From Tribonema minus (taxonomy: Eukaryota > Sar > Xanthophyceae > Tribonematales > Tribonemataceae), in contig JAFCMP010000032.1 of assembly GCA_017506865.1 (NCBI GenBank), positions 77,001 through 141,000 on the forward strand: 64,000 bases of DNA, read 5' to 3'. Position numbers and translations under genes: made by a program. Below the pieces are notes generated by a model, which did not search any database, had not been told where the DNA came from, and saw nothing but the letters and a program-made list of their open reading frames with translations. The stretch's first letter is position 1, and the number at the start of each line of letters is the position of its first letter. Positions 1 to 61,898 of the stretch are shown here, piece after piece.

Positions 1-3000
1 GATGTCCCCCGTGTCCAGGCTCAACTGCAACCGGGCAGGGCAGTCATGACACAGAGATCAGTGATCCATGCCACGGATTTAGGGCTTGCTCAAATCGATT
101 GTGCAAAGATGATGCCGCGCTGAGGGCTGTATGAAACGTCACGCCACAGCAAATTTGAATCTGCGCAGGAGGACTCCGCCCCAGAGCGACGCAGTCGCAG
201 TCCGTGCGGCGGACTTCCATTTTGCGATGACTTGACAAGTTGAAGTTGCAGCTAGAGATCTCAGTGGTGTGGTGCTCAGTCCATATCCACTCGCTCGTTA
301 GCACACTCTGGCGCGGCAGCAGAGAACGGCGCAGCGCGGGCACGGCTCAACACCGCCAACTTCAGGTAGATAAAGTACGCGGCGCGTGACAAACTGACAT
401 CGCAGGCAACACAGATGCCATTGCTTGCACAGCCGGCAGGCAACCCAGCAACATGCCGTTACTTGAACGGGGCGGCAGCGGTACCCTTCAACTTACTTAT
501 CCCCGTAACCACAATGTCCACCACTGCGGTCTACAGAGCAAATGCCACTTCGGAACTTCAACCACTGGCAGGAGCACACACTAACATACATACATACCCT
601 TCAACTTACTTATCTCCGTAACCACAACGTCCACCACTGCAGTCAACACAGCCAATACCGCTTTGGAACGTCAACCACTGTCAGGAGTACAAACTTCAAC
701 ATGTGTACCTCAAGCACCGCAATGTCTGAGCCGCCCAGGTTCGGTGCGCGGAGGTCGCCGCGCGTGCTGCCTGCCACTAGCACCCTGTCATCGTCATGAA
801 AAAATTGAGCAGAGAGCGCCGCAGCGGTGGTGGCAAAACGTGAGCTGCAGCACGCAGAATTACCAGAGACGTGAGCTAGAGCAAGCATGGAATGCGTTGC
901 TGGGCAAAACGTGAGTTACAGCATGTATGCAGTGGCGCCGGAGCTAGACCCTAACTTCAAGCAGGGAGTGTGTTGCGAACTGCGTGATCTGCAGGGGGCC
1001 GCTTAGAACTAGGGTTAGGGTTAGGAAGTGCGAGTGAGAGCATGCAGTATCACAGGAAGCGTGAGCTACAGCAAGCAAGGAGTGTTTTGGAACTGTGTGA
1101 GCTATGTAGGCACAGCAAACAGGGGGGCGTTTTAGTGAATGGTGACTGCATCACTGGCCCATGAGACTTGTCGCGATGCGGGGTAACGGCGTTGCCCCAG
1201 TGCTCACCCACTCGCAGCGCTCAGGCTGGCAATCAGGTGCAGTATAATAAGGTACGCGTAAGCGGCCGTCTCATGACGCCATCTAACCATCGGCTTCGGG
1301 TGCCCTCGACCCCGCTTCCCAGCGTGTGCGTATGGGGCCATGGCACCGCCCCAGTGCTCATCCGGTCACAGCGCTCAGGCTTGCATCTATGTGCAGTATA
1401 ATGTACATGCAAAAGCTACAGTGTCACGCCGCACCTTGACACCAGTATGAGGGTTGCCCCGACTCGACTCTCCAGTGTGTGCGCACAGGGTGACCAGGCC
1501 ACGCCCCCTCCCCCAGCGCTCAGCAAGCAGAGCGCTGGGTGTGACTCTCCCTCAACGCACCTGTTCGGACCGCGCGTTACGTGCAGTAGGCCACGACCAC
1601 CCGTGTGGAGTGCTATGACACGACTCCGCTTGTGCGTTGTCAGGTCCGCCTCAAGTGCTCTGCCGCAGTGCCTACTGTAGTTGTCAGCGCAGGGTGTGAC
1701 TCTCCCTTCGACGCACCTGTCCGACATGCGAGCATGTGCCGTAGGCGGCGTCATTCTTAATCCTAATCCTAACCCTAAACCCCTACACAGCGCTCAGCAC
1801 ACAAACTGCAGGGTGTGACTCTCCCTCAACGCACCTGTCGGACAGCGCGTACGTCACTAGGCCACCACCACTTCGTTGCAACCCAGCCTGTCCTGGTCTC
1901 CCTTCCTGCACCGTTGCGTCCACCTCCAGTGGCCTACTCTGCAACGGCGTCTGGTGTTGTTTCAAGTTAAAACAAATAAAACAAAGGGTGTGACTCTCCC
2001 TCAACCGTACCTGTTGGACAGCGCGTACGTGCCGTATGCGGCGTCGTTCCTTACCCTAACTTTAAACCCTAAACCTGACCCTAACCCCTCACACAGTGCT
2101 CAGCACATGATTCAGGGGTGTGACTCTCCCTTGGCGCACCTGTCCGACAGCGCGTACGTGCCATAGGCGGCGTCGTTCTTGCCGTCGGCAGAGCCATACG
2201 CGCGCGCCCACAGCGCCTGCCCTGACGCCGCGTCGAGCGCTGTGACGTGCATGTCGGTGTCGGCGTCGGACTGCAGGGCGCGCGCGCGGCGGCTGGAGCA
2301 GGGGAGCGTCACCGTTTCGTGTCATGAGCAGGGATTGCGGTGCAGCAGTGCGTAGCTGCAGCAGGAGAGGGTCACCATTTCTCCCTTATTGTTAAGGCGT
2401 GCGGTGCGGCAGTGCTCAGTGGAACTTGTTACGATGCTTCAAACTTATATACTTCACTGTCAGGTGCTTGTCGGTCTCAGCGTCGGACGCCAGGGTGCGC
2501 GCACGGCGCATGCGCCCTGAACGACCGCTGCACCGGAGGAGCATGACCATTTGTTGTTGTTAGAAGGGCGTGCGGTGCAGCAGTGCTCAGAGGAACTTTA
2601 GTTTTGAAGTGTGGGCAGCAAGCGCCAGAACACCAGTGCAGCCTCAACATTGTGTGAATCACAAGTGACGTACGTTAAAGTCCGGTCTCTGTGTCGGATG
2701 CGAGGGCGCGTGAGCGGTCGCGTTGGAAGGGCATCCGGTCTGGTTTTGCTCAGTGGAATATGAAATTCTGTGTGCACATGCCAAACGCAATGGTAAACTG
2801 TATTCGGCGTTGGTTTGCGGTAATCAAGCTTTGAAAGGCCTTCTTGTGTGGCATTGCTCAGCGGTATTTGAAGTTCTGGGTGTATGTGTGTCAGGCGCGT
2901 TGGTCAACAATTGTTGGCGTTAGTGTGTGGTTCAAAAGCTCCTGCACGCCTCGCAAACGTTTCAAGGCAGCGAGTCCATTTTGCGCCAAGAGGGGCTTCC

Positions 3001-6000
3001 AGAGTGGCATTGCTGAGGACAATTCTGTGTTTCACAGTAAGCGCCATAATGAGCATCAGAGGCTTTGTCGCGGTCAACGGTTCAAAGGGCGGCAGGGCTT
3101 CGGCGCGTGTGTAAGGGGCTTCCGATGCGGCAGTGCAGCAATTTCATGTTGGTGAGTGTGTAGTTGAAGTGTGCACCCGGTGCGTCACCCTGAGGCACAG
3201 CAGGACACGGGAGCCGCTCTTGGCGCATACAGCACGCCATCCGATTGCTGCAGCTGCGGCAGTAACGTGTCGATAGACGGAACGCTAGAGCGGAAGGGCA
3301 GAAGTGCGGGTATGGGGGCATCCTGCGCCGGCCAGCCAACCTGTATATTGAGCCAGTCTGTATACATAGTACAAAGTGCCTACGGCCATGAAGTAACCAG
3401 CTTACAGTTCGTCAATCCGCATTGTTTCTCTTTGCCGCAATCAGGCAACGCATTCGTCTCCTGATGCCATTCGTCTCCTGATGCATCTGCTCGTGCCAGA
3501 AACCAAATATCTGTGCAGTGCCACCCTGGTACCAGTGGCCAGATAAAAACGAAAAGTGCGATTTACGTCCATTAGAAAACTTCATGTTATTGTTAAAGTA
3601 TGGGTGACTTACCCGCCATCGCCTCCGGTTGCACCAGCAACAAACATCTGCGCAGTGCCAGCAGCAGTGGCCGCGCCCCATGCGGTCTCGTAGTTGCCTG
3701 TCGCGGCGCACGGCAGCGGGGCAGCGTATTGAAGTATGAGTGACGCTGCCATCTTCAAGTGCAACAGACACTTTCAGCGCAGGATGTTCGAGCGCCTCGC
3801 AGTTGCCCTGGAGTGTTGCAAACTGTGAGTGTTGGATATCAGGAACAGAGCGTGCGGGGGCTCCGGTGCTGTCTGTTGAGGAGGCAGCCAGGTGGCTGCG
3901 TAGCTCTCCGCTTGCTACCTGCGCCGGCCATCCCAGCTCTCGCCACAACCTTTATGTAAACTGCAAGCGTTTGCCAGCTACTAAAGTTGCTACGTGCAGG
4001 AAACAACGCACGCGCTACCCTAACCTTAACTCTAACCCTAAAATTTCTCCAGACGCGTGATCTGATGAGGCTTGATGAGGCTTCATGTCAACTTCAATTG
4101 CAACTTCAATTGCAACTCCGCACGCACCCGCAGCGCCCTGGTACTCCCTCAGCGGCTAAAGACCCGCCTTGTGCAACCTGCACCCCAAAAAAATGCGTAC
4201 ACCATCGCATAGCTGACCAGCCCTAGCCCTAACCTATTGCGACAAACTCTATCTAACCCTAATCCTAGCGCAACCGCACACGCACCCGCAGCGCCCCGGT
4301 ACTCCCAGAGCGGCCACACACATGCCTTGTCCGAACCCCACCCCAAAACACTTCATACATGCACCATACACCATCACGTCGCCGACCGGCCTAGCCCCAA
4401 CCCTAACCCTGACCCCAACCCTAATTCATTCCACATGCATGCAATTTAAACTCCGCGCACGCACCCGCAGCCCTCTGGTACTCCCACACATAGCCTAGCC
4501 CTAACCCTACCTGAACGCAACCTAGCCCTACCCCCTAGCGCAAACAGCCGTGCGTACGCACCCGCAGCCCCCTGGTACTCCCACAGCGGCTGCAGCCCCG
4601 CAACGTCCTGCTCCCCCAGATCCACCCCCCCGGGCGCAAATGCGGGGGCAGGCGCGGGCGTCACCACCGGCTCAGCAACCGTGCGCGGTTGCTCAGCACC
4701 CGGGGGGGGGGGCGCGGCAGGCGTGGGGGTACCCCCCCTTGCCCCCCCATCAGCGGCCACGGGAGCGGGGGTTTGCGCGGGGGAGGGCGCGGGGGTAGTT
4801 TCTTGCTCTGGCGGGGGGTCGGTGGGGGGGTCCGCTGGGGGGTCTGTCAGGGGCTCAGTGGGGGGGGGGTGGCGGGGGCTGTTGGCTCGGGGGTGTCGGC
4901 GGCGGTTGGTGCTGGGGTCTCTGGGGTCTGGGGGGGCGGCGGCGGTGGCGAGAGAGGGGGGGGGGTTGAGAGAGGTGGAAGGTGAGGCTCCACTGCATTG
5001 TGTGCATGCATGCATTTTCCGTACTGAAGAAAACAGCGCTTCTGTTTGGGGGGCAGGATTCCGGATTCGGAGAGTCGCAGGCAAACTTGCATCTCGAGTC
5101 CTTCACCTGTGCCACCAAAGGTGATGTCAACTCATCAGCAAAGTATACTGGTGCCATTGGCCGGGACTGCAAGTGATATCGCAATCGGTTCCGTAGGTAT
5201 GCATCAGTTGATGCAGAGTTCCCAACCCTCGCATGCATGGAAATGAATCAAAAGATCGTAGCGCTCTAGGTGACAAGGGATGGTTAGCTGCAAGTGCCAT
5301 CCACCAATAATACATACCTCAAAGTATCAAGGGATGGTTAGCCGCAAGTGCCTTCCACCAATAATACATACTTCAAAGTATCTCGCTATCATGTTGATCA
5401 GAGTTGATGCATCACGAAGCTCACGTCGCCCTGTACATGATCTAGCAATACTGTCGGCGGGTGCTATGGTACCTGAAACATACTTCTGCTTGAGGTATTG
5501 TGAATGTACATGTATTGTGGGTGTACATGTCTGGTAATGGCGTTCATCGGTGCTATCTGCAGCTAACTAGACTGCTACTTCAAGTACACCTACTGCAAGT
5601 ACATCATTGTGGAATGCATGCGTACCAAGACAGCCGTGGGGGCGGGCGGGTCCGCCGCTGTCAGCGTTATGCTACGTCAAGTACAACTACTTCAAGTACA
5701 TCATACGGAATGCGTGCATACTTACCGAGGCAGCTGCTGTTGGCGCCGGCGTGTCCTTGGGCTCGCTGACATCAGGCGTTACGCTACTTCAAGTACATAT
5801 GATGCTACTTCAAGCACATGATAATGGAATGTGAATGCGTGCATACTTGCCGAGGCAGCTGCTGTTGGCGCTGGCGTGTCCTTGGGCTCGCTGACATCAG
5901 GCGTTATGCTACTTCAAGTACATATGATGCTACATCAAGTACATGATATGGAATGTGAATGCGTACACACTTACCGAGGTAGCTGCCGTAGGGGCAGGCG

Positions 6001-15000: not shown

Positions 15001-15278
15001 AGCATCCGGGGTAGCACTCGTACATCAGTATCACGGCTGCAGCAGCATGGGCCATGGTGCTAACCTCCCTACCCGCAATCCGCTTTGCTCAGACCAAAGA
15101 GCCGACTGCCAAATTAAGTACTACTCTCTCGAATGCTGAGTGTCACCACCTCCCCGCTCACAACAACACTCAGGCTTCTGCAACATCGCTCAACCCTGCA
15201 CAAGCGCCCCCCCCCCCCACAATCGCACACATGCCAGTGCGCACGCCATTGTGGATTTGCGCCTCGTACATGACGCGC
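12036..15278. other. Intergenic region between gene A start and the lumen-protein gene end
   Basis: About 3.2 kb with no convincing coding exon. It should hold the gene A promoter (just above 12035). There is a short tandem repeat near 13522-13566 (about 23 bp, twice) and a direct repeat of about 40 bp at 14275-14315 and 14338-14377. Open frames here are short and have no recognisable motif. Confidence 0.6.
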
Positions 15279-21726: not shown

Positions 21727-21792
21727 ACATACGGGTATGGATGGACGTAACTGCTCGATCCATAGTGCTGGCCGTCTCTGGCCTTCGCAAGC
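21727..21792. promoter_or_regulatory. 66-bp bidirectional start region
   Basis: Only 66 bp separate the chosen start codons of the USP gene (minus) and the VTT-domain gene (plus). Any shared promoter must lie here or in the first exons. No TATA-like box is evident. The inference depends on the two chosen starts. Confidence 0.45.
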
Positions 21793-24740: not shown

Positions 24741-25057
24741 TACTGTACTGTGTGCTCGCAGCACCTTTGGGCGACGATGCCGCTGCCCTCGCGCAGCGAG
24801 TACAACGCCCGTACACCTGTGCACTGGTGAGTACACCTATGAACTGCCCGGTGCACGTGTACTCGCAGCACCTTGCAGACGACGCCGGCGCCCCCGCGCA
24901 ACGAGTACAACCCAGTACACCCGCGTACCGCTCGGTACACCGCTGCACTCACAGCACCTTGGAGACGACGCCGGCGCTGACCGTCCCCCCCCCCCCCCCC
25001 CCCGCGCAGCGAGTACAACGCCAGTACACCCGCGTACTGATAGGTACACCGCTACAC
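24741..25057 (-). repeat. Echoes of the EF-Tu 3' coding end downstream of its stop
   Basis: The final codons of EF-Tu (coding GAGVVSKVL, stop) with adjoining downstream bases are repeated at about 24947-25010, 24850-24910 and 24750-24810. They are separated by sequence rich in GTACACC. A 17-base C run lies at about 24987-25003. Unlike the other arrays these copy a terminal exon end rather than a splice site. Confidence 0.8.
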
Positions 25058-37005
<11,948 letters not shown>

Positions 37006-49000: not shown

Positions 49001-52000
49001 CCGCTCAGCGACAGCAGCGCCGCCGCTGCCGCCGCCGCCGCCGCTTCCGCCGCCGACACCGCCGCGGACATGCTCGTGCTACAGCGCCTGGACCTCGCTA
49101 CCGGAAAAGTCCGGTGGAAGACGGTTTATGAGGGGGCGGTGGGCACGGCGATGGCAGTCGCGAAGGGGGGTATCGTGGTGGCGGTGGGGAGGCAGGGGGG
49201 GAACGTCCTGGCGGTGGCGTCGCGGTATAGAGACGGCGCGCGGCTGTGGGAGTATGGGGGGGGGCGCACGGGGGGCGCGGAGGCGGTGACGCTGAGCGTC
49301 GAGGGGGGGTTCGTGGTCATCGTGGGGAGCACTGCTGTGGAAGGTATTAACGCCTTAATAGTGCTGAAACGCGTCAACCCTCGACTACATAGTAGTCGTG
49401 TACAGTCCGCCAGTGTAGTGGTCATGGGTCTTAGGTCACTTAGGTCACGGTCAGGTTATGCTGAGCGCCAAGGGAGGGTTTGTGGTCATCGTGGGGAGCA
49501 CCACTGTGGAAGGTATGTTCAGAACAAGTCGAAATGTCTTTGAAAATGATAGGTATCCTTGGTTCATAGAAAAAGGTATAGATACGGCGCGCGGCTGTGG
49601 GAGTATGCGGGGGGGGGCGCGGGGGCTGCGGAGGCGGTCACACTGAGCGTCGAGGGTGGGTTCGTGGTCATCGTCGGCAGCACCGCTGTGGAAGGTATGG
49701 TCGGAACTAGTTCAGCGCACTTATCACTTCCTCGTCTCGCCCCGCTCTGCGGGCGTGAGCGCTGCTGCAGTTGACAGCGACGCCCGGTGACATCTACTGC
49801 ACGCGGGCTTCTCTCTGTTTGACACGGTGGCAGTGCTCAGTGGGGTGGGGGACAGAATGTGGCTTCTGCAGTGCTCAACATGGCAAACAGAGAGAAGCCC
49901 GCGTGCAGTGACGAGCACTGACACGGTGGCAGTGCTCAATGGGGTGGAGGGCAGAATGTGGCTTCTGCAGTGCTCAACATGGCAGTGCTCATCACTCTCT
50001 GCCGTGTTGAGCACTGCAGCATATGACACTGTGTCAGCGCTCATCACTCCCTGCCTGTTGAGCACTGCAGATGCCACAGCGTGTCAGCGCTCATCACCCC
50101 CGTCCCGCACCCCGCTGAGCACTGCTGCTGTGTCAGCGCTCATCACTCTCAGCCGTGTTGAGCACTGTGGATGTTGTCAGCGCTCATCACTTGTTTCACC
50201 ACTCTCTTCTGCCTGCTGAGCGCTGCAGATGCCACACTGTGTGTCAGCGCTCACCACTCTACTTCCGCCCCGCTGCTGCGCGCTGCAGATGCGAGCGGCG
50301 CGCACATGGACGCCTTTGTGCTGACCCTGGACCCCGCCACGGGCGACGAGCTGTGCTACTACTCGTTCGGGTCGCCGGCGGATGACGTGGTGAGTGCATT
50401 GAGGGTATATGTAATCAGGCCTGCATTGAGGGTATGCATGTACTCTTCATTTGAAATTCTCGTGCAGGACGCGAGAAAGCCCAGGTGAATGGCATTGAAT
50501 TAGAAGCTTGCTGTACGGAATGTACATGTTGTGTGACAGTCTGAAAGTGTCTCATTGACAACCACTCAAACGCCGCCGCCGCCACTGGCAAACGGCATCT
50601 CGGAATCCTCCCCTACGTCCTCCTCCCTTTGCCCCCCCCCCCTGGATTCTGCCATGTGTGTCATGACACGGCCAGAGTACGCCATGTGGAACGCTGCCGC
50701 CGCCGCCGCCGCTGCGCGCAGGCGACGGGTGTTGTCGCGAGCTGTGGCGCCGCCGCCACCGGCACCGTGATACACCTTCCAACACCTTCCAATACGTATT
50801 TAAGACATGAGTCTGTTGCCGCCGCCGCTCACGCCGCTGCCGCCGCCGTCACCGTCACCACTGCGCAATCGCACTTCAACGCACTCTGCATCCGCGCCAT
50901 CGAAAAGCTCTTCTATGCGCCGCTTTTAGCGCATGTGTGCTCGTCCCAGTGCTTCACATTGTGACACACCTTCCAACACCTTTCAACGCGTGTATTCACA
51001 ACACACGAGTCCGCCGCCGCCGCCGCTGCGCGCACGCGACGGGCGTCGTCGCAAGCGGCGGCGCCGCCGTCACGGTCACCATAACACACCTTGCAACACC
51101 TTCTAATACGTATGCTTTGAAGTATAAGACATCAATCTGCCGCCGCCGCCGTTGTGACACACCTTGCAACACCTTCCAATACATATGTGAGACACAAGTC
51201 TGCCGCCGCCGCAGCCGCTGCAGGCGATGGGCGTCGTTGCGAGCGGCGGCGCCGCCGTCACAGTCACTGGCCGCACGTCCGGCGCGCTCTTCGCCGCCGC
51301 CGCCGGCATGTGACAAACCTTTTAATATATATATAAGACATGAGTCCGCCGCTGCCGCCGCCGCTCACGCTGCTGCCGCCGCTGCTGCCGCCGCCGCTGC
51401 GCGCAGGCGACGGGCGTCGTCGCGAGCGGCGGCGCCGCCGTCACGGTCACCGGCCGCACGTCCGGCGCGCTGTTTGCCGCCGCCGCCGGCGCGTCCGACG
51501 CCTTCGCCGTCGCCATCGACCAGGCGACAGCGTGCACGCTGCCGCCGAGCACTGCCCCGGCGGTTTTCCAGGACCCCGCCGTCGCCGGTCGCGTCGCCAA
51601 GACGCTCACCGCGACGACGGCGGCGGCGGGCGGCGGCGCGATCGCCATGGCCGCGGCGGCGCCGGCGGCCGCGGCGGGGGCGGGGGTGCAGGTGGCGTCG
51701 TTCGCGGGCGGGGCGGCGGCGTTCATGATGGTCGGGCAGCTGCAGTTCATCAGCACGACGTCGCTGGTGGACGCGAATCAGAGCCGCCAGGTGCGGTCCA
51801 TCGTTGAACATCAACTTTGTTTTGTCAACTTCAATGTTGCTGCAGGGGGAGTAGTGGGTGTGTAGCACTCGTGATGGTGCGTCACTGCTGAAGTTCATGA
51901 TGGTCGGGCAGCTGCAACTCATGAGCATGACGTCGCTGGTGGACGCGAACCAGAGCCGCCAGGTATGGACGGTCCCTGAACTTCAACTTCAATAATGTTT

Positions 52001-55000
52001 CAATTTCAATGGTTCAACTTCCAAGTGCTGCTGAAGGGGGAGTAGATGGGTGTAGCGCATCGTGATGGTGCGTCACAGCTGCAGTTCATCAGCACGACGT
52101 CGCTGGTGGATGCGAATCAGAGCCGGCAGGTATGGGCGGTCCCTGAACTTCAACTTTGATAACGTTTCAACTTCAATGGTTTAAACTTCAATGCTGCTGA
52201 AGGGGGAGTAGATGGGTGTAGCGCATCGTGATGGTGCGTCACAGCTGCAGTTCATCAGCACGACGTCGCTGGTGGACGCGAATCAGAGCCGCCAGGTGAG
52301 TGCAAGTCGCCAAGTCGGAGTCGCTGGGGGGTGAGTCGCGCCCTTACGTCAGCATCAAGATTGCGAGCCCGTAGCTGTTGCAGGTTGAGCTTGTGGCGCT
52401 GACTTCGCTGGTCGACGTGAACAGAGAGTCGCCAGGCAAGTCAGAGTCGCCAAGTCTGAGTCATTGCGGGCGAGTCGTGGCGTGCGCTGCCGCGCCCTCA
52501 CGTCAGCATCGTAATTGCAAGAGCCTGTAGCTGTTGCAGGCTGATCTTGTGGCATTGACGTCGCTGGGCGACGCGCACCAGAGAGTCGCCAGGCAAGTCA
52601 GGGTCGGCGAGTCAGAGTTGCCGAACGAGCGAGTGGCAGCGCAGACGGACTTCCTTACTTGTAATGCTAACCCCAACGGTCGTCATGGAAGTGAGCAACA
52701 ACGGCGGACCGTCATCCTGTGACCCTGACCCTGACCCTAAGACGTCAACCCGAGCCTGTCAGGCACTCTCAGGGTCTAGGTCAGGAATAGGACAGAGCTG
52801 AGGATTAGGATCAGGTGGATTAGGTTTGGTATTTTAGGGTTAAAGTGAGCGTTAGGGTAGAGTCGCCGCTTTTTTTTGGGGGGGGGGGGGGGGGGGGAGT
52901 GCGGCAAGATACAATCACGGATCGATCGGGGTAAGTTCCTGGTGCACCACCGCATAGCGCATGCGCGCGCACCGTCGCCGCTCTGCATGTTTTCCGATGC
53001 AAGTGCATCAAAGTCTTGGCAAACTGGGCTGCATTGTCCACACGTGCCACGCTGGGTATGTAGAGGTATCCTTTCTGCGGCCTTAAACTCACTGTCATTT
53101 GATGCTGGCCTTGCCCTGCCGCGTGCGCAGTTTGTGGATCTCGCGGGGAGCCTGCGCTGGATCAACCTGTGGTGGAGCGCTGACGCGCTCATACCGGACG
53201 GCAGGTAATGCATACCTACCTAATTAACTGGCAGTTTGATGGCGTGCTGACAAAGTCATGCCCGGCGGCAGGTAATGCATACCAACCTTAGTCAACTTCA
53301 ACTTTGGCAGTGTTCAACCTGTGGTGGAGCGCCGACGCGCTCATACCCGACGGCAGGTAATGCATACCTACCTAATGAACTTCAGCTTTGACAGTTTGAT
53401 GGTTTTGCAACTGTGGTGGAGCGTTGACGTACTCATACCCGACAGCAGGTGATGCATACCTACCTGAGTCAACTTCAACTTTGAATCTGTGGTGGAGTGC
53501 TGACACACTCATACCCGACGGCAGGTAGTACCCAACCTTACTCAACTTCAACTCTGGCAGTAGTTGCAACCTGTGGCGGAGCGCTAACGTCATACCAGAC
53601 GGCAGCTAATGCATACTTACCTCAATCAACCTCAACTTTGCCAGTAGAGCAATAACTTTGGCAGTCATGCTGCAGGGTGTGGGCGTAGGGGACAGGCGGT
53701 GTGTACGCATCCGGCCAGTCTCTACAACAGTACGTTCCGATATGTTCAAGAGGCAGAAACCCCAGTGGAAGTACATGTCTGTCAAATCATAGCAAGATTT
53801 GCCAAAGGAGCACTGTTGGGCGCTGTTGAAAGAGGGTTAGGGTGGGATCATCCACACTTGGAGGTCTAAAAACACAGCGACCCCCCCCCCCCCCCCCTCA
53901 CACACACACCATACGCTGCACGATGTACAGTCTGTTTGGTCACAAGGTGGCCTACAATAGCCTGTGATGATTGTGGAGATCAACGAACTCAAGCATACTC
54001 TGTTCACTCTCCCACATGCATGCCTTCACTGCGCGGAATGCATTCTGCTGCCACCAGTGCCTCAGACGTATCTGTATCGCCGCAGGGCTTGTCTGTTATC
54101 TCTACACAAATTAGTATGTCTTCAAATACCACTTGTTTGCAGCTGCATCACCAAGGATGACACCAGAGTCGGCGGCGACACAACACTGCTCAAAACCATA
54201 ATGTTCTTCAAGTTAAGGTTTGGATTTGAAATCCAGAAATTCAGCTGCACTTGTCTGCTTGCCCGAGTATGTTTTTTTTCTCCGGACGTCTCTTGTTTTG
54301 CAACTGCGTTGCTAAGGACGACGGCGGCGTCACAACAGCACTGCTCAGTACTGCCAAACTTTGAACTTAAAGTTAGCAACAAAATTGGGCTTCACAGCTT
54401 GTCCAACAATGTTCTTTTCTCCACATGGCTTCCGTTCGCAGCTGCTCGCTGAGGACGGCAGCGGCGCCGGCGGTGACGCCTTTGTCGGCAACACCATCCT
54501 GGTATTCAAATTGAAGTTTGCAGCCCGAACTCCGCCAGCTACACTTGCCTGCTTTTTCCAGCAGCTATTCTTATTGCCCGGACGGCTCTTGTTTGCAGCT
54601 GCATTGCTAAAGACGACACCGGCGTTGGCAGCGACACCTTTGTTGGCAACACCATCCTGGTCTTCAAATTGAAGTTTGCAGTCCGAAATTCAGATAAGAA
54701 TCAGCTGCACTCGTCTGCTTTGTCCAACGATGGTTCTTTCTCCACATGGCTTTTGTTTGCAGCTGCATTGCTCAGGACGACACCGGCGTCAGCGGCGACA
54801 CAGCACTGCTCAGTACTGCCACATTCTGAAGTTTACCACCAAAGCTCACCAACACTTTTCAGCTTGTCCAAAGATGGTTTTCTCCATATGGCTCTTGTTT
54901 GCAGCTGCATTGCCAAAGACGACACGGGCGTCGGCGGCGACACGTTCGTCGGCAACACCGTCCTGGTGGTGGGCATCACAGCGCTCATCGTGCTGTTCCA

Positions 55001-58000
55001 TCTGGTGGGAGTGTCACTGGTTGAAGCTTGCTGGCTCGCCAAGGACAAGGCGCGCTACCACCAGAGCGGCGCCATCGTCGTTGATACGCCTGATGCAGCG
55101 GAGTCGGTGAGTGTTCAATGAAAACTGAAAATACAGTATGGAAACAACTCAAAAGATCGTAGAGCTCTAGGTGACAAGGCGTGGCTAGCCGGCGCCATCG
55201 TCATCGACACTTCTGACGCGGCGGAGTCGGTACGTGAGCACCCGTGTCCTGCCGACTCATACTCTTGAGCACTGCCATGTACTTCAAGAAGTATTGCATC
55301 AACATCAGGCATCAGCCTCAGGGGGCGGAATTTGAAGTTGCATTGCCAGCATGCTCGGTGCACGAGGGAATGAGCACTGCCATACTTCGAAGTTATATAC
55401 CATCAAGGGGCGCACCTTGAAGTTGTATCGACAGCATGCTCGGTGCGCGAGGAAGTAAGCATTGCCGCGTACCGTATGGCATCATCCTCAAGGGACGCGT
55501 CTTGACAGATGCGGCTTTGGAGTTTCAGCCGAGTTCCAACCAGCAAAGGGGATGCGCATGCTCTCAGCAAGGTTCCAGCTACGAGTGGTGGAGGAGAAAG
55601 CGCGAGGTATCAGTGTCATTGTCTCACATCTCATCCCACTTTCTACTTACCGCGGTCACCTGAGCGGTGGGCTGGTAGTCACAGCGTACTCACGGTCAGG
55701 GTTGAGGTGAGAGTTGGGGTCAGGGTTGCGGTTATCAGTATGGTCAGGCTCCGCTGCAACTTCAGTGAGCCTTCAGTACAATAAGGCTTGTGAAGGCACT
55801 CTGCTTTGTGTGGCTGGCTAGAACTGGCGTCTATTCAGAAGCCCTGGTTCAGGCTCATGCCTCGATATATCTACGCACCTCACGCTTGTGCTGTCTGCCG
55901 GTGAACAATGGTGCAGGGCGTGATCCGCGCCGACAGCGCGCCGCTATCGGGCAGCCACGGTGTGTCTTCAGTACAGTCAGGCTTGCGAAGGCACTGTGCT
56001 TTCAGCTAGGACCCCCGCATCTAATCAAAAGCCCTGGTTCAACCCATGCCTCGATACACTATGCCGTATGAAGCTCACGCCTGTACTGTCTGCTGCTTTG
56101 TTGCAGGGCGTGATTCGCGCAGATGCGCACCCCTGTCAAGTAGCCACGCTGAGCACCGTGCACACCCTGCTGACTCTGTGCACATGCATCAACAACAGCG
56201 CCCTACTGCGTATCAGCAGCTATATATATATAACGCGACCATCATGCACGCATGCCTGATCGATTGCGAATGCCTTGCCCTCACCGCGCCGCGCGCTGCT
56301 CTTTGTCTGCCAATTTCGGTGCAGGGCGTGATCCGCACCGACAGCGCGCCGCTGTCGCGCAGCCACTGTGTGTCTTCAGTACAGTCAGGGGCTTGCGAAG
56401 GCACTGTGCTTTCAGCTAGGACCCCGGCATCTAATCAAACGCCCTGGTTCAACCCATGCCTCGATACACTATGCAGTATGAAGCTCACGCCTGTTCTGTC
56501 TGCTGCTTTGTTGCAGGGCGTGATTCGCGCCGACAGCGCGCCGCTATCAGGCAGCCACGGTGTGCTCGTGACGCCATCGACGGCGCCGCCGCGCGACAGG
56601 GGCGTCTCAGAAACGGACAGCGAGGGCGAAGTCATTGTCAACATGGTGACCGCGACCAAGTCCAAGCGGTCAAAGAAGGTGATTGGTGAATGAATTCATT
56701 CATGATCGTCAACTTTCGGGATGCGGGCCGCTGCATGTGTACAAGATGTGAGAGTAGGGAGCGAGGGCAAAGTCATTATCAACATGGTCACCAGGACCAA
56801 GTCCAAGCGCCGCTGCTGTGTGCGCGTGGGAATGGGACAGTAGGTCCCGCAGCTGCTTCCAGTGCGCTCTGAGAGATCCTTCTTTCACTTTCTCGTGGAA
56901 CCGCACTTGTTGGCTAGCTTTTCAGCACTATGGTCTGCTCAGATGCTCAGTTACTTCTTGAAGTTCAACGCCCGCCTCTGCCCTCCGTCGACCACCCCCC
57001 GGACCACGCGCGCCAGCGCTCGCTGTCAACTTCATATTTGAAGATACTGATTGAAGTTCAGCAACCGCATCTCTCCACGCACCGACCGCTCTCTCCAATC
57101 GCGCAGCTCTTCAACGCCGCGGACGATCACCCCGCGGACCACATGCGCCAGCGCTCGCGCTCACCTCAACTTGAAATGTATGTTTGAAGCTACTTATTAA
57201 AGTGCAGCCCCTGTCTCTCTCCACGCCGCGCAGCTCTTCAACGCCGCGGACGACCACCCCGCGGACCACGTGCGCCAGCGCTCGCGCGCGCTGTGGCTCC
57301 ACTTCATGCTTGAAGTTGCTTCTTGAAGTTCAACACCCGCCTCTCCCGTCCGCGCGCCGCGCAGCTCTCCAACGCCGTGGAGGAGACCACGTGCGCCAGC
57401 GCTTGCGCTCGCTGTGACTGCGTGTTTGAAGCTGTCATTTTGAAGCTGCTGATCAGAACTTGAACAACTGCCTCTCTCTCCGCGCCGCGCAGCTCTTCAA
57501 CGCCGCGGACGACCACCCCGCCGACCACGTGCGCCAGCGCTCGCGCTCCCTCTGGCTCCACTTCCCGCACGTCGAGCTCCTCTTCCTGCTCTTCGCGTAC
57601 GAGGGCGCCGTCGCCGCGCAGGCGTCCATGCTGCGGAGCCCGTGCGCGTCGCTCGTCGTCGCCTCCGTCGCGCTGCTGCTGCTGTACCCCGTGCTGCTGC
57701 TGCTGCTGGCGTGGCGCGTCGTGCAGGCGCTGCGCCTTGGCGCTGCCGTATACGTACCTCATGGGGACAGCGCTCAGCACGCTGCAGAGCGCGCCGTTGG
57801 GCGCTGCTGTCGGACCGCGCTGCGCTCGCCAAAGGCGGTCGTTGTGGGTGTTTACAGGTGCGTGTGTGTGTAAGTGTGTGTGTGCGTGTGTGCGTGCGCA
57901 TGTTGTGTGTGCGTGTGTGTGTTGTGTGCGTGTGAGTGTGTGTGCGCGTCTGTGTGCGTATGTGTGTGTGTGTGTGTGTGTGTGAGAGTGTGTGCGTATT

Positions 58001-61000
58001 TCTTTGATGGGAGCCAGCGCCGGGAACGACCTCAGTACATCGAACAAGAGTACACTTCCGATTACGTTGCGTGATTCTTCAAGTAGTGACAAAAAGCCGT
58101 CATGTGGTCGTCTACGAGTGCGTGGCGGCTTGCGCGAGCAGTGGCGCCGGGAGTGACCGGCCAATTCTACAAGAAGTGCATGTTTGCAAAACGCTGAGAT
58201 CAACGCTCTCGCGCTGCTTTATCATTGGACTCGGGTTCGCATTAGGGTTACATAATGGTGATGATCATGTGGCTACACTTGCTTGCGTGCTTTGCTTGGT
58301 TTGTGCGGGTGGCGGTGACGGGAACGACCATGTCGCATTACGCAAGAGCAATGCTTGTCAACGCATGTTCAATGAAAGTCACCGTGGGCACCCACCCCCC
58401 AGTAATTTTTTGCTGAAGCCTTTGTCTCGCCCCGATCGCCGCGCAACCCTGAAGCCCCCCCCCCCCCCCCCACCACATGATTCTATGCCAAAACCTTTTT
58501 CTTGCCCCGTTTGCAGCGCGTTTCGAGATGCCTGGCGGCACGGCGAGAGCATATTTGCCGCGGGCGACAAGGGGCACTGGCAGGTGCCCGAGGGCGTGCG
58601 CGACGACAAAGCACGATTAGACAGGGAGTCCTTCATGATAGGCTATGAGCCCGTGTTCCGGGACTTCACGGCCGGAGGCACGTACTACGTGCTGGTCATC
58701 ATGCTGCGACTCATGGGCACCAGCCTGGTGAGTCGGCGGCGCGCTGCTGTACTTCAATGTTGAAATAGAGTAACCTGGGGCAGCCCGACGAGTTGGGGCG
58801 CAGCTGGAGTTCAACGTTGAAGTAAGGGCGGACTTACCGGCTGGCGGCACGTATTACGTGCTGATCATCATGCTGCGGCTCATGGGCACCAGCCTGCTGC
58901 ACATCAATGTTGAAGTAGAGTAACCTGTGCAGCCTGTGGGTGAGTCGGCACCAGCCTGGTGGGTCGGGGGCGCTGCTGTGATTCAATGTTGAAGTAGAGT
59001 ATCCTGCCCGGCCTGTGGTGAGTCAGGGCGCTGCTGGAGTTCAACATTGAAGTAGGGCAGCCTGCGCCAGTGACCTCTGGGTTACGCGAAATTCGCGGGG
59101 TGTGCGTGGTTGCGTATGTCGACGCTCACGGCAGGGCGAGCTATAGGTGGCGTGTCACGCTGTCACAACACTGGGCAGCGCCTGGCCGCGTGAGTCCAGC
59201 TGAACCTCAACATTGTAGTTTACCCTAACCTTAACCCTAACCCTTGTGTGCGCGCTGTACACCCCTGTTCACAATGTGTCAAAGTCTGCAGACGCATTAC
59301 CGAACTCGGCCTAATGCGGATGCTTTCTGATCGCACCCCCCCCCCCTTGACATGCAGATCTCGGCGCTGGTGAAGAACGGCGCCGTGGCGAGCGCGCTCC
59401 TGTGCGCGCTGTACGCCTCTTCATGATCTCCAATTTTGTGCCAATACGTCTCACCGAACCACGTTGAACCGCAATGCCTCCTTACCGCTGCACTGCCCCC
59501 CCCCCCCCCCCCCCCCTCCCTCCTTTCCTCCCCCCTCGCGCCTGCGTGCAGATCTCGGCGCTGGTGAAGAACGGCGCCATCGCGAGCGCCCTCCTGTGCG
59601 CGCTCTACGCCGCCAACCTGCTGCTGGTCGCGGCGTGGCGCCCCTTCTGCAACACCTTCCTCCAGGTCGCGGAGACCGCGATGCTCACCATCAACCTCGC
59701 GTGCCTGCTCATCACGTGGTTCGGCGCCGCCGCGGCGCACGATGACCCCACGCTCAGCGACGTCATCTTCGGAATGTTCCTCGTCCTGCAGCTCGTTCTG
59801 TGCTTCTGCATCGTCCTGCCCGTGTACGTCGACATGGTGCTCGTCGTGGTCGGCCGCGCTAATAAGAAGTTCACCAAGGAGAAGAAGGGGGGCGGCGGCG
59901 AGGCGCCGTGGCCGCGCGCGCGCAACGGCGGCGGCGGCGGCGGCGGCGTCCACGTCAGCGTCCGAGTCCCAGTCCGAGTCAACAGGCGCGACGTGCTCGC
60001 GTACTTCAGGGTCATGGTGCGGCAGAACGCGCTCGCCATGTGGCGCAGCCTGCGCTTCGGCGTGCGCGCCGGCGACGAGGTGAGCAGCAGCGCTCGACAT
60101 TGCAGCACTTACTAGGGTTAGGGTTTAGGGGTTTGACATGTGACGCAGCCTGCGCTTGGCCGTCCGAGCACTGAGGTAAGCCGCAGTGAGCAGCATGCAG
60201 CACCAGCCAGGATTGGGGTTCAGAGTTACATGTGGCGCACCCTGCGCTTCGGCGTGCGCGCCGGCGACGCGGTAAGCAGCAGCGCTCAGCATGCAGCGCC
60301 TTATTAGGGTCAGGGTCAGGGTTAGGGTTGGGGTAGGGTTAGGGCCATATGGCGCAGCCGGCAGTTTGGCGTACGCGCGCCAGTGACGAGGTGAGCAGCA
60401 GCGCTCGGCATGCAGCACTTACTAGGGTGATATTTCTTTGAATAGGGTTACGGCCACGTGGCGCAGCCTGACGTTCGACGTGCGACAGTGCGCAGCACTG
60501 TGATCATGGCTGCATGCAGGCATTAGACTCAGGGCTGAGGCCATGTGGCGCAGCCTGCAGTGCGGCGTTCGCGCCGCGATGAAGCGCTCAGCGTTCAGCA
60601 TTCAACACCTTCTAGGGTTGGAGTTAGGGCCCTGGCCCAAGTCATGCTCAGCACCAATCGCACTTGGTATGTCTGCCTTCGTAGCCCTGCGTGTCAAACC
60701 GGAGCGATGATGCCACATGCGCGCGCGCGCGCGAGGCGCTGCGTGCAGTCCCGCAGCCGCACTTTTAACGAAAAAACATTACAGTGCTCATGTCTGCTGC
60801 TACCCCTAACCCTAACCCTAACCGTACCCTGGGGCACTTGAAGTATCATCTGCCTTAGGCCACTGCGTGTTTTCAAGAACTGACGCCCGTGCGCGTATTT
60901 GCACGGCCAATAGAGCAAATGCAGACCCATTTCTCTGTACGCGTTTTGAGGTACTTCCAAAGCAACAACAAAATGCTTACAGTATTCAATTTGGGGCGTG

Positions 61001-61898
61001 GTCTGTGGTTCCATGCACAGACTGCTAAGGCAAGGAACCACAGACTGCTAAGGCAAGGAAGGCAGCTGTTATGTTAACGTCATGTGAGTGGTATCCAGCA
61101 ATGATTTTTGTTGGTTTCTCCATACAACACACTGCTAAGCCAAGGCAGCTGCTATGTTAACGTCATGTGAGTGGTATCCAGCAACGGATTTTGTTGGTTT
61201 CTCAAAATGGCTGCTTCGCTCAAACCCAAAGCTTGAGAGCGCCAAACGTCTCTGGCTGGGTCAGGTCTGCGTGTGCAAGCGGTGTGGCCAATGATAATGC
61301 ACACTCCAGTCATTGCAGCCGGCCATTGTACAGCATGTTGCTATTTTGCGGACCGGGCTGGGGCAGACGCGCAGGCTACTTCAAACCTGCTACTGAGCGC
61401 GCTTGCAGACGAACAACTCACAACTGCAAAGCTGCCCCTGCGCTGCCACCGACCGCGCACACAAAACACCTGCAGCGTGAGCGTGACTCTGAAGCGTGCG
61501 CTCGAACTTGATGACTGACCCCACCCTGCCATCACATGCACACTCGAAACAGTGGCATGCAGCTGACACCTTGAAGTGTGCGCTTGAACTTGATGCTTGA
61601 ACTTGATGCTTGAACTTGATGTTTGAGCGCGCAGGTGGAGCTGCCGCCGCAGCACGGCGTCGTCGGCGGCCTCGTCGCGCCGCCCGTCGTCGAGAAGTGC
61701 CTGCCGCGCCGCAACTCATCGCTCAGCTCGCTGTACTCCAGCAGTACACGTGGACTGTACACTGCGGACGACGAGCAGCGCAGCGGCAGCGTGCGCGCCG
61801 CGTTCGCGGCAGGCGACAGCTGGCGGCGCAGCGCCGGCAGCATGAGCACTGCCGCCGACGGCGGCGGCGAGGGCGAGGCGGCGGGCGCGCGCAACTAA
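37006..61898 (+). CDS. Giant surface protein: Pro/Gly/Ser stalk, SBBP-like beta-propeller and TRP-like polytopic membrane domain (gene D)
   Basis: Exons 37006-37294, 37813-38777, 40099-41389, 42894-42951, 44390-44551, 45967-46042, 47869-48075, 48929-49343, 50289-50389, 51407-51790, 53131-53204, 54905-55106, 56517-56678, 57493-57857, 58517-58727, 59552-60079, 61635-61898. Every junction keeps phase; total 1917 residues. Signal peptide (MAVVVLLLVLHGTIIPG); RRRL; YQPPPADSG and Gly/Ser repeats (to about 418); ATPDASVAATEGPTQPQ and ATPDPSVA repeats (to about 770); propeller blades (about 830-1260) such as DAFVLTLDPATGDELCYYSF and MLVLQRLDLATGKVRWKTVY; then about seven membrane helices (about 1280-1800) including VGITALIVLFHLVGVSLVEA and HVELLFLLFAYEGAVAAQ, and a Ser-rich cytosolic tail. 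The membrane part recalls fungal/oomycete TRP-like proteins; an ion-channel or sensor role is inference. Exon 14's donor is the least certain. Confidence 0.8.
37813..38777 (+). repeat. Coding repeats: YQPPPADSG and Gly/Ser units
   Basis: Exon 2 of gene D opens with about six 27-bp units coding for YQPPPADSG, followed by four to five longer units of roughly 84-90 bp coding for SGSGGGDSGGGSSGSAADSG plus a YVPP link. The exon is in frame throughout and probably forms an extended extracellular stalk. Confidence 0.85.
40129..41060 (+). repeat. 63-bp and 24-bp coding tandem repeats in gene D
   Basis: About ten copies of a 63-bp unit (ATAAATPDASVAATEGPTQPQ, with T/E/Q variants and one short copy) are followed by about ten 24-bp units (AATPDPSV). 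The 63-bp unit is composite, containing the shorter TPD(A/P)SVA word. Ala/Thr/Pro repeats of this type occur in heavily glycosylated stalks. Confidence 0.9.
41392..41592 (+). mobile_element. Dispersed short repeat, copy 3
   Basis: Begins right at the real donor of gene D exon 3 (41390) and ends near GCGTTCGAGGTACGTATGTA, which carries another donor-like GTATG. Sense to the gene, as with copies 2, 4 and 5. Confidence 0.8.
42425..42890 (+). repeat. CCTAACCCTATACGTACCCTACCCCTCGCG repeat units
   Basis: About six units of 60-130 bp made of CCCTA-rich sequence, CACGCAGCCCAGTACACGACCGTC and GAGCAGCGGCGC(C/A)GAGCTC. The last unit overlaps the real acceptor of gene D exon 4 (42894), so this is an acceptor-side echo array fused with telomere-like sequence. 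Confidence 0.85.
42955..43560 (+). repeat. Echoes of gene D exon 4's 3' edge
   Basis: The edge coding AGASGGDGR plus GTCAGT donor and the next roughly 60 intron bases recur at about 43048-43140, 43190-43285, and more decayed near 43310-43395 and 43490-43555. Copies share AGTGCTCAGTA and AGCACGCCAGGTATG. Confidence 0.85.
44200..44310 (+). repeat. Echo of the front of gene D exon 5
   Basis: About 95 bp starting at the acceptor of exon 5 (RRGRQLQ...VTITALNTD) is copied about 180 bp upstream. The copy is still open over this stretch but lacks the second half (GKALWHRTWGSH...) and a donor, so it is not a usable alternative exon. Confidence 0.9.
44700..44930 (+). repeat. Echoes of gene D exon 5's 3' edge
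   Basis: The edge CAGATCGGGGACAG plus GTATGTAT donor recurs near 44735-44765 and 44888-44920 with the same GGGTATGG continuation. Confidence 0.85.
45588..45765 (+). mobile_element. Dispersed short repeat, copy 4
   Basis: Closely matches copy 3 (ATTGGCCACGAGTCCAAGAG, CCGTGGTCGC). Lies in a gene D intron about 1 kb from the donor. Confidence 0.8.
46550..46800. repeat. Direct repeat of about 140 bp containing a 22-bp perfect palindrome
   Basis: Two related units (about 46550-46670 and 46690-46800) share CGCAGGGCGC, CAGCACTC, TTTGAAGCTGGGGCATCATCG-like segments and end in CCTGACAGTTACG blocks. The palindrome CTGACAGTTAC/GTAACTGTCAG is perfect at 46639-46660 and changed by one base in the second unit. 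It lies in the intron before exon 47869-48075 of gene D. Confidence 0.8.
47040..47868 (+). repeat. Echoes of gene D exon 7's 5' edge and GTACTCGCAGTGTACCCACC units
   Basis: The acceptor and first codons of exon 7 (VHAATGRLRGG) are present at about 47482-47520 and 47661-47760 before the real exon at 47869. The 47661 copy also matches the next 70 bases (GWQVGTGRD) but leaves the frame soon after. About ten copies of a 20-24 bp word containing CTGTACTCGCAGTGTACCCACC fill the gaps. Confidence 0.85.
48786..48905. repeat. Telomere-like runs before gene D exon 8, with an exon 8 echo
   Basis: A (CCCTAA/ACCCTAACC)-type run, degenerate, lies between an echo of the exon 8 start (48741-48790, TTATIAVSADRA) and the real exon at 48929. 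Confidence 0.85.
49440..49700 (+). repeat. Echoes of gene D exon 8's 3' edge
   Basis: The exon 8 end (coding AVTLSVEGGFVVIVGSTAVEG and GTAT donor) is repeated at about 49456-49515 and 49577-49700. The second copy covers about 120 bp (from ARLWEY on). Both retain a donor. Confidence 0.9.
49820..50288 (+). repeat. GCGCTCATCACTC / GAGCACTGCAG repeat cluster before gene D exon 9
   Basis: About ten units of 35-60 bp alternate TGTCAGCGCTCATCACTC with TTGAGCACTGCAGATGCCAC. The latter resembles the real acceptor GCGCTGCAG-ATGCGAG at 50289, so the cluster is an acceptor-side echo array. A larger 100-bp duplication is visible at 49830-49985 (shared segment AGAATGTGGCTTCTGCAGTG). Confidence 0.8.
50460..50770 (-). 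mobile_element. LINE-like fragment, copy 2
   Basis: Shares with 29515-29720 the block from GACAGTCTGAAAGTGTC through GGCCAGAGTACGCCATGTGG, including a C run. It ends where the first copy continues with FGSIGEQGRKLL-coding sequence. It lies in the intron between exons 9 and 10 of gene D. A mobile origin is inferred from its presence in two unrelated genes; family assignment is weak. Confidence 0.4.
50770..51406 (+). repeat. Echoes of gene D exon 10's 5' edge
   Basis: The acceptor region (CTGCGCGCAGGCGACGGG) and first codons (ATGVVASGGAAVTV) recur at about 50715-50765, 51025-51085, 51220-51305 before the real exon at 51407. Units of about 150-200 bp share CACACCTTCCAACACCTT. Confidence 0.85.
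51880..52640 (+). repeat. Five echoes of gene D exon 10's 3' edge
   Basis: The edge coding QLQFISTTSLVDANQSRQ with donor recurs at about 51895-51965, 52075-52132, 52240-52298, 52380-52436 and 52530-52594, with increasing decay away from the real edge at 51790. Three units share a 120-bp intron segment containing CCCTGAACTTCAACTT. Confidence 0.92.
52870..52898. repeat. T8/G-rich homopolymer run
   Basis: Eight T followed by about 20 G in a gene D intron. Length is likely uncertain in the assembly. Confidence 0.6.
53280..53620 (+). repeat. Four echoes of gene D exon 11's 3' edge
   Basis: The edge coding NLWWSADALIPDGR with GTAATGCATACC continuation recurs at about 53310-53370, 53408-53465, 53488-53535 and 53567-53620. 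Each is preceded by AACTTCAACTTTG-like sequence. Confidence 0.92.
53881..53897. repeat. Poly-C run (17 bases)
   Basis: Homopolymer in a gene D intron, followed by a short CA-rich stretch. Confidence 0.7.
54130..54904 (+). repeat. Five echoes of gene D exon 12's 5' edge
   Basis: The acceptor TTTGCAG and first codons (CIAKDDTGVGGDTFVGNTVLV) recur at about 54137, 54298, 54434, 54593 and 54757 before the real exon at 54905. The 54434 and 54593 copies keep the longest match (GDAFVGNTILVF / SDTFVGNTILVF) but then diverge. Spacing is about 140-165 bp, with a shared TTGAAGTTTGCAG segment. Confidence 0.93.
55137..55200 (+). mobile_element. Dispersed short repeat, copy 5 (truncated)
   Basis: Only the left about 60 bp (AAAAGATCGTAGAGCTCTAG, GTGACAAGG) is present, starting some 30 bp after the real donor of gene D exon 12. 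It then passes into an echo of the exon 12 end (GAIVIDTSDAAES). Confidence 0.75.
55910..56516 (+). repeat. Three echoes of gene D exon 13's 5' edge
   Basis: Acceptor GTGCAGGGCGTGAT and codons for GVIRADSAPLSGSHGV are repeated at about 55914-55965, 56104-56150 and 56324-56370 before the real exon at 56517. About 150 bp of upstream intron (AGTACAGTCAGG... AAGCTCACGCCTGT) is duplicated with two of them. Confidence 0.92.
56960..57492 (+). repeat. Four echoes of gene D exon 14's 5' edge
   Basis: The segment coding LFNAADDHPADHVRQRSRSL with its acceptor recurs at about 56980-57025, 57105-57165, 57230-57300 and 57360-57415 before the real exon at 57493. Units of about 120-135 bp share TTGAAG(C/T)T(A/G)CT intron words. 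Confidence 0.92.
57858..57993. repeat. TG-rich microsatellite
   Basis: A (TG/CG)n tract directly downstream of the proposed exon 14 donor at 57857. It makes open frames on both strands that are not genes. Confidence 0.9.
58800..59060 (+). repeat. Echoes of gene D exon 15's 3' edge
   Basis: The edge coding GGTYYVLVIMLRLMGTSL is repeated at about 58840-58900. Shorter remnants with TTCAA(C/T)(A/G)TTGAAGTA and AGCCTGGTG-like sequence follow near 58950 and 59030. Confidence 0.9.
59350..59425 (+). repeat. Echo of gene D exon 16's 5' edge
   Basis: Acceptor ATGCAG and codons for ISALVKNGAVASALLCALYA are found about 190 bp before the real exon (59552), with a C run before each. The copy stops after about 70 bp. 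Confidence 0.92.
60120..60620 (+). repeat. Five echoes of gene D exon 16's 3' edge with telomere-like runs
   Basis: The edge coding MWRSLRFGVRAGDE and its donor recurs at about 60138-60185, 60230-60280, 60347-60400, 60455-60500 and 60543-60600. TTAGGG-type runs sit between most copies (60114-60128, 60301-60345). Confidence 0.92.
60980..61205. repeat. Direct repeats in the last gene D intron
   Basis: A segment containing ATGTTAACGTCATGTGAGTG and TTTTGTTGGTTTCTC occurs at about 61060-61122 and 61148-61203, each preceded by an ACTGCTAAGGCAAGG-type word (four copies in all). Confidence 0.85.

What the first reader, a model, noticed from the sequence alone, without database searches (positions are those of the whole stretch)
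709..61634. Introns built from decayed copies of their own exon edges ('exon-edge echoes')
At nearly every exon of the EF-Tu and A/D genes, and at single junctions of the USP and VTT genes, the last or first 30-120 bp of the exon, with splice site and adjoining intron, recurs 1 to about 15 times in the neighbouring intron. Copies are truncated inside the exon, tend to decay with distance, and are often spaced 100-200 bp. They occur on both donor and acceptor sides and in unrelated genes on both strands, so this is a genome habit and not a gene feature. I know of no standard intron-expansion model that describes junction-anchored serial duplication of this kind.
Basis: seen in the sequence. Interest (0 to 1): 0.88.

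Follow-up and report, generated by a model that had tools for sequence, protein, structure and literature searches.

The report
Introns grown from duplicated exon ends
In this stretch of an unidentified eukaryote's genome, about half of the intron DNA of three genes has a nearby side-by-side copy, very often of a piece that straddles the end of an exon, which suggests that introns can lengthen by duplicating their own borders.

Summary
Of 42 exon-intron borders tested in six genes, 27 have at least one direct copy of the border (exon end, splice site, adjoining intron) inside the neighbouring intron. Inverted matches occur at 2 of 36 borders. The copies are tandem duplications: spacing median 158 bp, 60 of 67 between 90 and 250 bp. 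The exon part was 88 bp or less in 68 of 69 junction-crossing copies. Of 90-bp intron tiles in the three echo-rich genes 504 of 983 have a nearby direct copy, against 6 of 232 in four stretches outside those genes.

I expected uniform tandem duplication plus selection against in-exon events to explain this. It did not: 0 of 23 simulated parameter sets without border bias met the target, against 20 of 46 with 70 or 90% of founders at borders. A border preference is therefore likely. 'Serial copying from the exon' is only partly right: in the largest array 8 of 11 copies are closer to another copy than to the exon. The splice site need not be the anchor: the EF-Tu stop codon is echoed three times. 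One window, no RNA, mostly predicted gene models.

The parts
25060..35935 (-). EF-Tu (mitochondrial-type) coding exons: 35935-35849, 33457-33246, 31886-31725, 28790-28633, 26574-26477, 25525-25060; presequence further upstream not resolved
   Evidence: Pfam GTP_EFTU, D2, D3; tblastn; spliced alignment, GT-AG at all five introns; the stop codon at 25060 read from the sequence
29252..31724 (-). Echo array of the exon-3 donor edge in intron 3: 11 junction-crossing copies plus fragments
31887..32780 (-). Echo array of the exon-3 acceptor edge in intron 2: 6 junction-crossing copies
32913..33154 (-). Echoes of the exon-2 donor edge in intron 2: one crosses the junction, one (93 bp of exon) stops at it
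28898..29008 (-). Echo of the exon-4 acceptor edge in intron 3
27234..27427 (-). Two echoes of the exon-4 donor edge in intron 4, 1.25-1.34 kb from the donor
26290..26341 (-). Echo of the exon-5 donor edge in intron 5
24750..25011 (-). Three echoes of the EF-Tu coding end, stop codon and 3' flank: an edge without a splice site
41191..61898 (+). Right PQQ/TRP-like gene, tested exons ..-41389, 44412-44551, 45967-46042, 47869-48075, 48929-49343, 51407-51790, 54919-55106, 56517-56685, 57493-57857, 58517-58727, 59552-60079, 61635-61898 (predicted; 56685, 57857, 58517 and 61635 least certain)
   Evidence: codon-model prediction, corrected by edge alignment and by the left paralogue; PQQ_2 at 20.1 bits, under the Pfam cut-off of 27.6
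44110..60629 (+). Echoes at 16 of 22 borders of the right gene, e.g. 51893-52298 (donor 51790), 54119-54801 (acceptor 54919), 55827-56372 (acceptor 56517), 60229-60629 (donor 60079)
711..4799 (-). Left paralogue, tested exons 4799-4562, 2270-2140, 784-711
   Evidence: tblastn of right-gene exons, junction strings
1514..2100 (-). Four echoes of the left-paralogue donor at 2140
4107..4488 (-). Three echoes of the left-paralogue donor at 4562
19982..20119 (-). Two echoes of the USP donor (GC-type donor, first intron base 20200)
   Evidence: UCH domain
22861..22886 (+). Echo of the VTT-gene donor (first intron base 22688), 26 of 26 identical
15795..16758 (-). Negative case: intron of a plastid-like gene, no echo at either border
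   Evidence: 0 of 23 duplicated tiles in 15900-16650

Best explanation
The echoes are local tandem duplications. A unit of about 96-240 bp, with one end 20-88 bp inside an exon and the other 63-190 bp inside the intron, is duplicated in place. The outer, original splice site stays in use, so the duplicate falls inside the intron and is tolerated. Some arrays then grow, probably also by copying copies, and the copies decay. Shown by sequence: direct orientation, tandem spacing, inclusion of splice site and adjoining intron, decay, scarcity outside the echo-rich genes. Inferred: that the outer splice sites are the ones used; that duplications start at exon borders more often than elsewhere in introns (supported by simulation); and the reason. 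I prefer that exons are the conserved, alignable blocks in fast-changing genes, so that misaligned exchange or repair starts in exon ends, while events wholly inside exons are removed by selection. A direct role of splicing or transcription is not excluded.
For: Direct against inverted local matches: 42.0% against 3.5% of 2,131 tiles over the whole window, coding repeats included. Spacing median 158 bp, 60 of 67 in 90-250. First echo 96-240 bp away at 23 of 24 borders; its exon part is 20-88 bp, its intron part 63-190 bp, and the exon share is at most 0.51 in 23 of 23 (KS against uniform p = 1.2e-5); 8 of the 23 exons are shorter than the unit, which caps the share, but the maximum is also 0.51 in the other 15. 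Exon part 87.5%, intron part 82.0% identical, as expected if one side is conserved. Duplicated tiles: 504 of 983 in introns of three genes, 6 of 232 in four other stretches. Models without border bias: 0 of 94 kept draws reach 18 of 28 borders; 0 of 23 meet the joint target of at least 20 of 36 borders with interior frequency at most 0.2; with 40, 70 and 90% of founders at borders 3 of 29, 9 of 23 and 11 of 23 do (observed 23 of 36 and 0.157). Homologous donors of the two paralogues differ in copy number and exon part. Of 27 near-perfect tandem pairs, the 10 that I read as coding all have periods that are multiples of three; of 13 that I read as non-coding 5 do.
Against: With intron sequence only, duplicated tiles are as frequent far from borders as near (0.48-0.66 over six distance bins), and 18 of 28 borders touched equals the duplicated share of intron, 15,623 of 24,200 bp. 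Taken alone this looks like no border preference; the preference rests on the simulations. The class 'outside edge arrays' is partly circular. My simulation priors are narrow, the biased model took its 90-bp limit on the exon part from the data, and one unbiased draw reached 23 of 36 borders without meeting the interior criterion; one reached 16 of 28 with only three interior points. Gene models other than EF-Tu are predicted or hand-set. Exon breakpoints vary within a border (intraclass correlation 0.23 over 15 borders). GC does not distinguish duplicated from unduplicated intron. Some kilobases inside introns of echo-rich genes are also empty (3-4, 29-30, 34-36, 41-42 kb). No RNA evidence.
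Confidence: 0.62

Rival explanations
1. Uniform neutral tandem duplication with purifying selection: duplications strike everywhere at one rate, those inside exons are lost, and the exon-edge ones are merely the ones that can be recognised.
For: Flat duplicated fraction with distance from borders; border coverage equals overall coverage; clear interior duplications exist, e.g. 27533-28197 and 26130-26212; stop-codon echo.
Against: None of 94 and none of 23 unbiased kept draws reproduce the pattern, nor did the 12 hand-chosen settings; four stretches outside the echo-rich genes have 6 of 232 duplicated tiles; the exon share of the unit is not uniform.
Confidence: 0.2
2. Minisatellite-type arrays: one rare founder per border, then amplification by slippage or unequal exchange; the border is incidental.
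For: EF-Tu intron 3: 8 of 11 copies nearest to another copy; exon parts of 34-61 and 45-59 bp within the two largest arrays, EF-Tu I3 donor and I2 acceptor.
Against: 9 of 24 positive borders have a single copy, so founders are common without amplification; does not explain why so many borders were founded.
Confidence: 0.12
3. Splicing- or transcription-directed duplication, for example repair at RNA-DNA hybrids or templated by unspliced RNA at the border.
For: Border bias in simulations; duplications scarce outside the intron-rich genes; exon part short and bounded.
Against: Echo also at a stop codon; a spliced gene with none; no direct evidence for an RNA step.
Confidence: 0.15
4. Mobile elements or introners that carry exon-like ends.
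For: Dispersed repeats exist in the same introns.
Against: Each echo matches its own adjacent exon and intron; copies are local and in direct orientation.
Confidence: 0.02
5. Assembly artefact.
For: No reads available to check.
Against: Copies differ from the source by about 12-18% on average and have varied breakpoints.
Confidence: 0.02

Closest known systems
Internal tandem repeats at exon-intron boundaries in human segmental duplications (PMC2812944, 2009; passages read)
   Same: Tandem repeats that sit at exon-intron boundaries and change introns
   Different: There units of about 30 bp, repeated about four times, in recently duplicated primate genes (around 7% of those genes hold variable repeats); here units of 96-240 bp at most tested borders of several genes, with splice site and intron included
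Intron gain by tandem genomic duplication (PMC3443670, passages read; PMC4974935, listing and start of abstract)
   Same: Tandem duplication in a gene, splicing hides the duplicate
   Different: There an exonic segment with AGGT is duplicated and a new intron arises; here existing introns lengthen and each copy carries an existing splice site with its intron
Human introns from tandem arrays (Zhuo et al. 2007; title seen only in a reference list; the paper is not held)
   Same: By its title, introns associated with tandem arrays
Direct repeats near intron splice sites (PMC11782384, 2025; abstract and passages read)
   Same: Direct repeats near exon-intron borders
   Different: There 4-30 bp repeats (mean 11.4), one near each end of an intron, read as insertion scars; here long copies of one border inside the intron
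Introner elements (Amoebophrya, PMC7789003; passages read)
   Same: Repeats in protist introns
   Different: Repeated introns with inverted repeats that spread in the genome; here local copies of the neighbouring exon end

Membership tests
Tandem duplication at exon-intron borders | Copies in direct orientation, close by, in tandem spacing | tested here: met
   Direct 42.0%, inverted 3.5% of tiles; spacing 90-250 bp in 60 of 67
Tandem duplication at exon-intron borders | Unit spans exon end, splice site and adjoining intron | tested here: met
   67 junction-crossing copies at 24 of 36 borders
Intron gain by tandem genomic duplication | Intron lies between two copies of an exonic AGGT segment | tested here: not met
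   In the alignments shown, copies run across the existing splice site into intron sequence; I made no separate search for flanking AGGT copies
Introner elements | Same element at many unrelated intron sites | tested here: not met
   Echoes match their own border; the dispersed repeats found within this window are other sequences
Minisatellite array | Copies share one register and are related to each other | tested here: inconclusive
   Largely so in EF-Tu I3; exon-part intraclass correlation only 0.23 over 15 borders
Alternative splice sites or exons | Copies are used in mRNA | not testable with these tools
   No RNA data

The most novel reading that the evidence does not exclude
Exon-intron borders are themselves hot spots for tandem duplication in this lineage, through a process tied to splicing or transcription, so that introns lengthen mainly by pushing older copies of their own borders inwards, with an age gradient from the exon.
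Probability: 0.3. Interest if true: 0.85.

Novelty: new variant of a known kind. Interest (0 to 1): 0.64.

Why it matters
How introns lengthen without mobile elements is, to my knowledge, poorly documented. Here the copies keep a record that could be dated, because the exon stays conserved while the echoes decay. If the border bias holds genome-wide it would be a steady source of decoy splice sites and of raw material for new exons, and would point to a testable mutational mechanism.

Tried and rejected
Uniform neutral tandem duplication was my first explanation; simulations with and without array growth, insertions, deletions and a quiet period did not reproduce the data. An argument that borders are covered as often as random points I do not take as conclusive, because every copy adds covered interior DNA while a border is counted once; it is reported as evidence against. 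A permutation that confined duplicated runs within introns (18 touched against 3.7 expected) I rejected as biased the other way. GC as driver: duplicated edge tiles 0.554, other duplicated 0.532, unduplicated 0.541. Hairpin seeds: perfect hairpins are in excess (30 centres, nested ones counted, against 5-13 in 5 shuffles), but I did not compare them with breakpoints. Selection on decoy sites: donor copies keep GT in 32 of 36, acceptor copies AG in 20 of 31, but the search itself requires matches across the junction, so no conclusion. Relatives of two window proteins in viral contigs: none confirmed. No genome is held for the window; the organism was not identified.

Rows changed or dropped: searches used earlier gene models (28 borders); searches use revised ones (36). 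In one search, with the earlier models, exon parts ran up to 125 bp at a border later found misplaced. One search holds two misplaced donors, corrected. Simulation draws with mean intron length outside 1000-2600 were dropped (94 of 336 kept, 98 of 288). Pfam was run on the plus strand of 34-64 kb and the minus strand of 1-15 and 19-34 kb only, the PDB search on the plus strand of 49-64 kb only.

Full report
What is there. The window reads as eukaryotic; no genome is held for it. A mitochondrial-type EF-Tu gene lies on the minus strand, with six exons and five GT-AG introns of 951-2,934 bp by spliced alignment. A large gene on the plus strand, predicted from codon usage and corrected by hand, has a sub-threshold PQQ_2 match; its TRP-like membrane segments are my reading, without a Pfam or PDB match. 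A paralogue runs off the left end on the minus strand. A USP gene (UCH domain), a VTT-like gene (recognised by eye, not searched) and a plastid-like gene (17266-16759 and 15794-15294; its N-terminal motif is recalled) are also present.

The observation. tblastn with EF-Tu already shows it: pieces of the exon-3 end at ten places in intron 3 and of its start at five in intron 2. Aligning each border with its own intron gives 34 hits in EF-Tu and none to the reverse complement. With revised models, 24 of 36 borders in three genes have junction-crossing copies, 67 in all, with inverted matches at 2 of 36; after correcting two donors, 25 of 36; under a stricter rule 23 of 36. USP and VTT add 1 of 2 each, the plastid-like gene 0 of 2: 27 of 42.

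Anatomy. Copies are direct and spaced 90-250 bp in 60 of 67 cases, median 158. The exon part is 8-88 bp in those 67 (the 8 is my cut-off); two further copies have 59 and 120 bp, and one copy that stops at the junction has 93. At 23 of 24 borders the first echo is 96-240 bp away, with 63-190 bp of intron. Its exon share is at most 0.51 in 23 of 23; 8 of these exons are shorter than the unit, and the maximum in the other 15 is the same. A uniform share is rejected (KS p = 1.2e-5). The exon part is 87.5% identical to the source, the intron part 82.0%; identity falls weakly with distance (Spearman -0.36, p = 0.003, pooled non-independent copies). In EF-Tu intron 3 the copies look like one array: 8 of 11 are nearest to another copy and 3 to the exon, with one copy-copy pair at 90/90 and most forks open. 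Across 15 borders with two or more copies the exon part is only loosely shared (intraclass correlation 0.23), so several borders may have had more than one founder.

Not only splice sites. The last 23-39 coding bases of EF-Tu, its stop codon and about 60 bp of 3' flank recur three times downstream. So the edge of the conserved sequence is enough in this case. The assumed EF-Tu start gave no echo, but its position is uncertain.

Is it more than uniform duplication? About half of intron tiles have a local direct copy, at any distance from the border. In four stretches outside the echo-rich genes 6 of 232 do; one of these lies in the intron of the plastid-like gene, the others are presumed intergenic. 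A kilobase map shows duplication in most of the three intron-rich genes and little at 12-18 and 62-64 kb. It is also absent at 34-37 kb, most of which is EF-Tu intron 1, whose borders have no echo by the crossing rule (one acceptor copy carries 6 exon bases), and in single kilobases within other introns (3-4, 29-30, 41-42 kb). At 18-25 kb it is intermediate, and inverted matches are about as frequent in parts of it (18-20, 23-24 kb), so low complexity contributes there. I simulated introns under uniform duplication with purifying selection, array growth, insertion, deletion and a quiet period. None of 94 kept draws reached 18 of 28 borders. In a second run 0 of 23 unbiased draws gave at least 20 of 36 borders with interior frequency of at most 0.2, though one reached 23 borders with a higher interior frequency; with 40, 70 and 90% of founders at borders 3 of 29, 9 of 23 and 11 of 23 did. 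Observed: 23 of 36 and 0.157. The biased model took its 90-bp limit on the exon part from the data. I conclude that a border bias is likely, with the caveats that the priors are mine and that three echo-rich genes of one window were used, two of them paralogues.

Recurrence. Homologous donors in the two paralogues differ: left donor 2140 has four copies with 29-44 bp of exon, right donor 44551 two with 15-20 bp; left donor 4562 has three, right donor 41389 none. I did not align the arrays of the paralogues with each other. They formed separately or turned over after the gene duplication.

Mechanism. Shown: local tandem duplication followed by decay; array growth is likely in the largest case. 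Of 13 near-perfect tandem pairs that I read as non-coding, 11 have overhangs of 0-6 bp and two of -1 and 11, compatible with slippage or microhomology repair; I did not test this against chance. Inferred: the outer splice site stays in use. The cause of the border bias is open; I prefer exons acting as conserved anchors for misaligned exchange or repair, with splicing- or transcription-linked damage as the main rival.

Literature. Ten searches of the held open-access library listed no paper that I recognised, from title and start of abstract, as describing pervasive border echoes. The nearest are tandem repeats at human exon-intron boundaries (PMC2812944, passages), intron gain by tandem duplication (PMC3443670, passages) and short direct repeats at splice sites (PMC11782384, abstract and passages). 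Most subscription papers are not in the library, so this does not establish novelty.

Noticed in passing
5237-5310, 22888-23086, 41404-41597, 45590-45752, 55138-55191: A dispersed repeat family, all copies in the same orientation, 79-91% identical in the longer pairs; two copies start within about 35 bp of an exon end (41389, 55106).
   Followed up: no
29489-29729 and 50439-50699: A 261-bp dispersed repeat (84% identical) in introns of EF-Tu and the right gene, possibly part of a mobile element.
   Followed up: no
7739-7769, 7970-8016, 32443-32490, 48830-48904, 60304-60344: Telomere-like TTAGGG/CCCTAA tracts inside or near genes and introns.
   Followed up: no
6950-7559, 37823-38502, 40113-40848: Low-complexity repeats that I read as coding (TPAPT-like, GSG-rich); near-perfect pairs there have periods 27, 63, 87, 102 and 15 bp, all multiples of three.
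   Followed up: partly
whole window: Word AACTTCAA occurs 55 times on both strands, and perfect hairpins are in excess (30 centres against 5-13 in 5 shuffles); relation to the arrays not tested.
   Followed up: no
20200: The USP intron appears to use a GC donor (CAG|GCGAGC).
   Followed up: partly
27533-28197: A 330-bp tandem pair, 93-95% identical, deep in EF-Tu intron 4: a fairly young interior duplication without exon sequence.
   Followed up: partly
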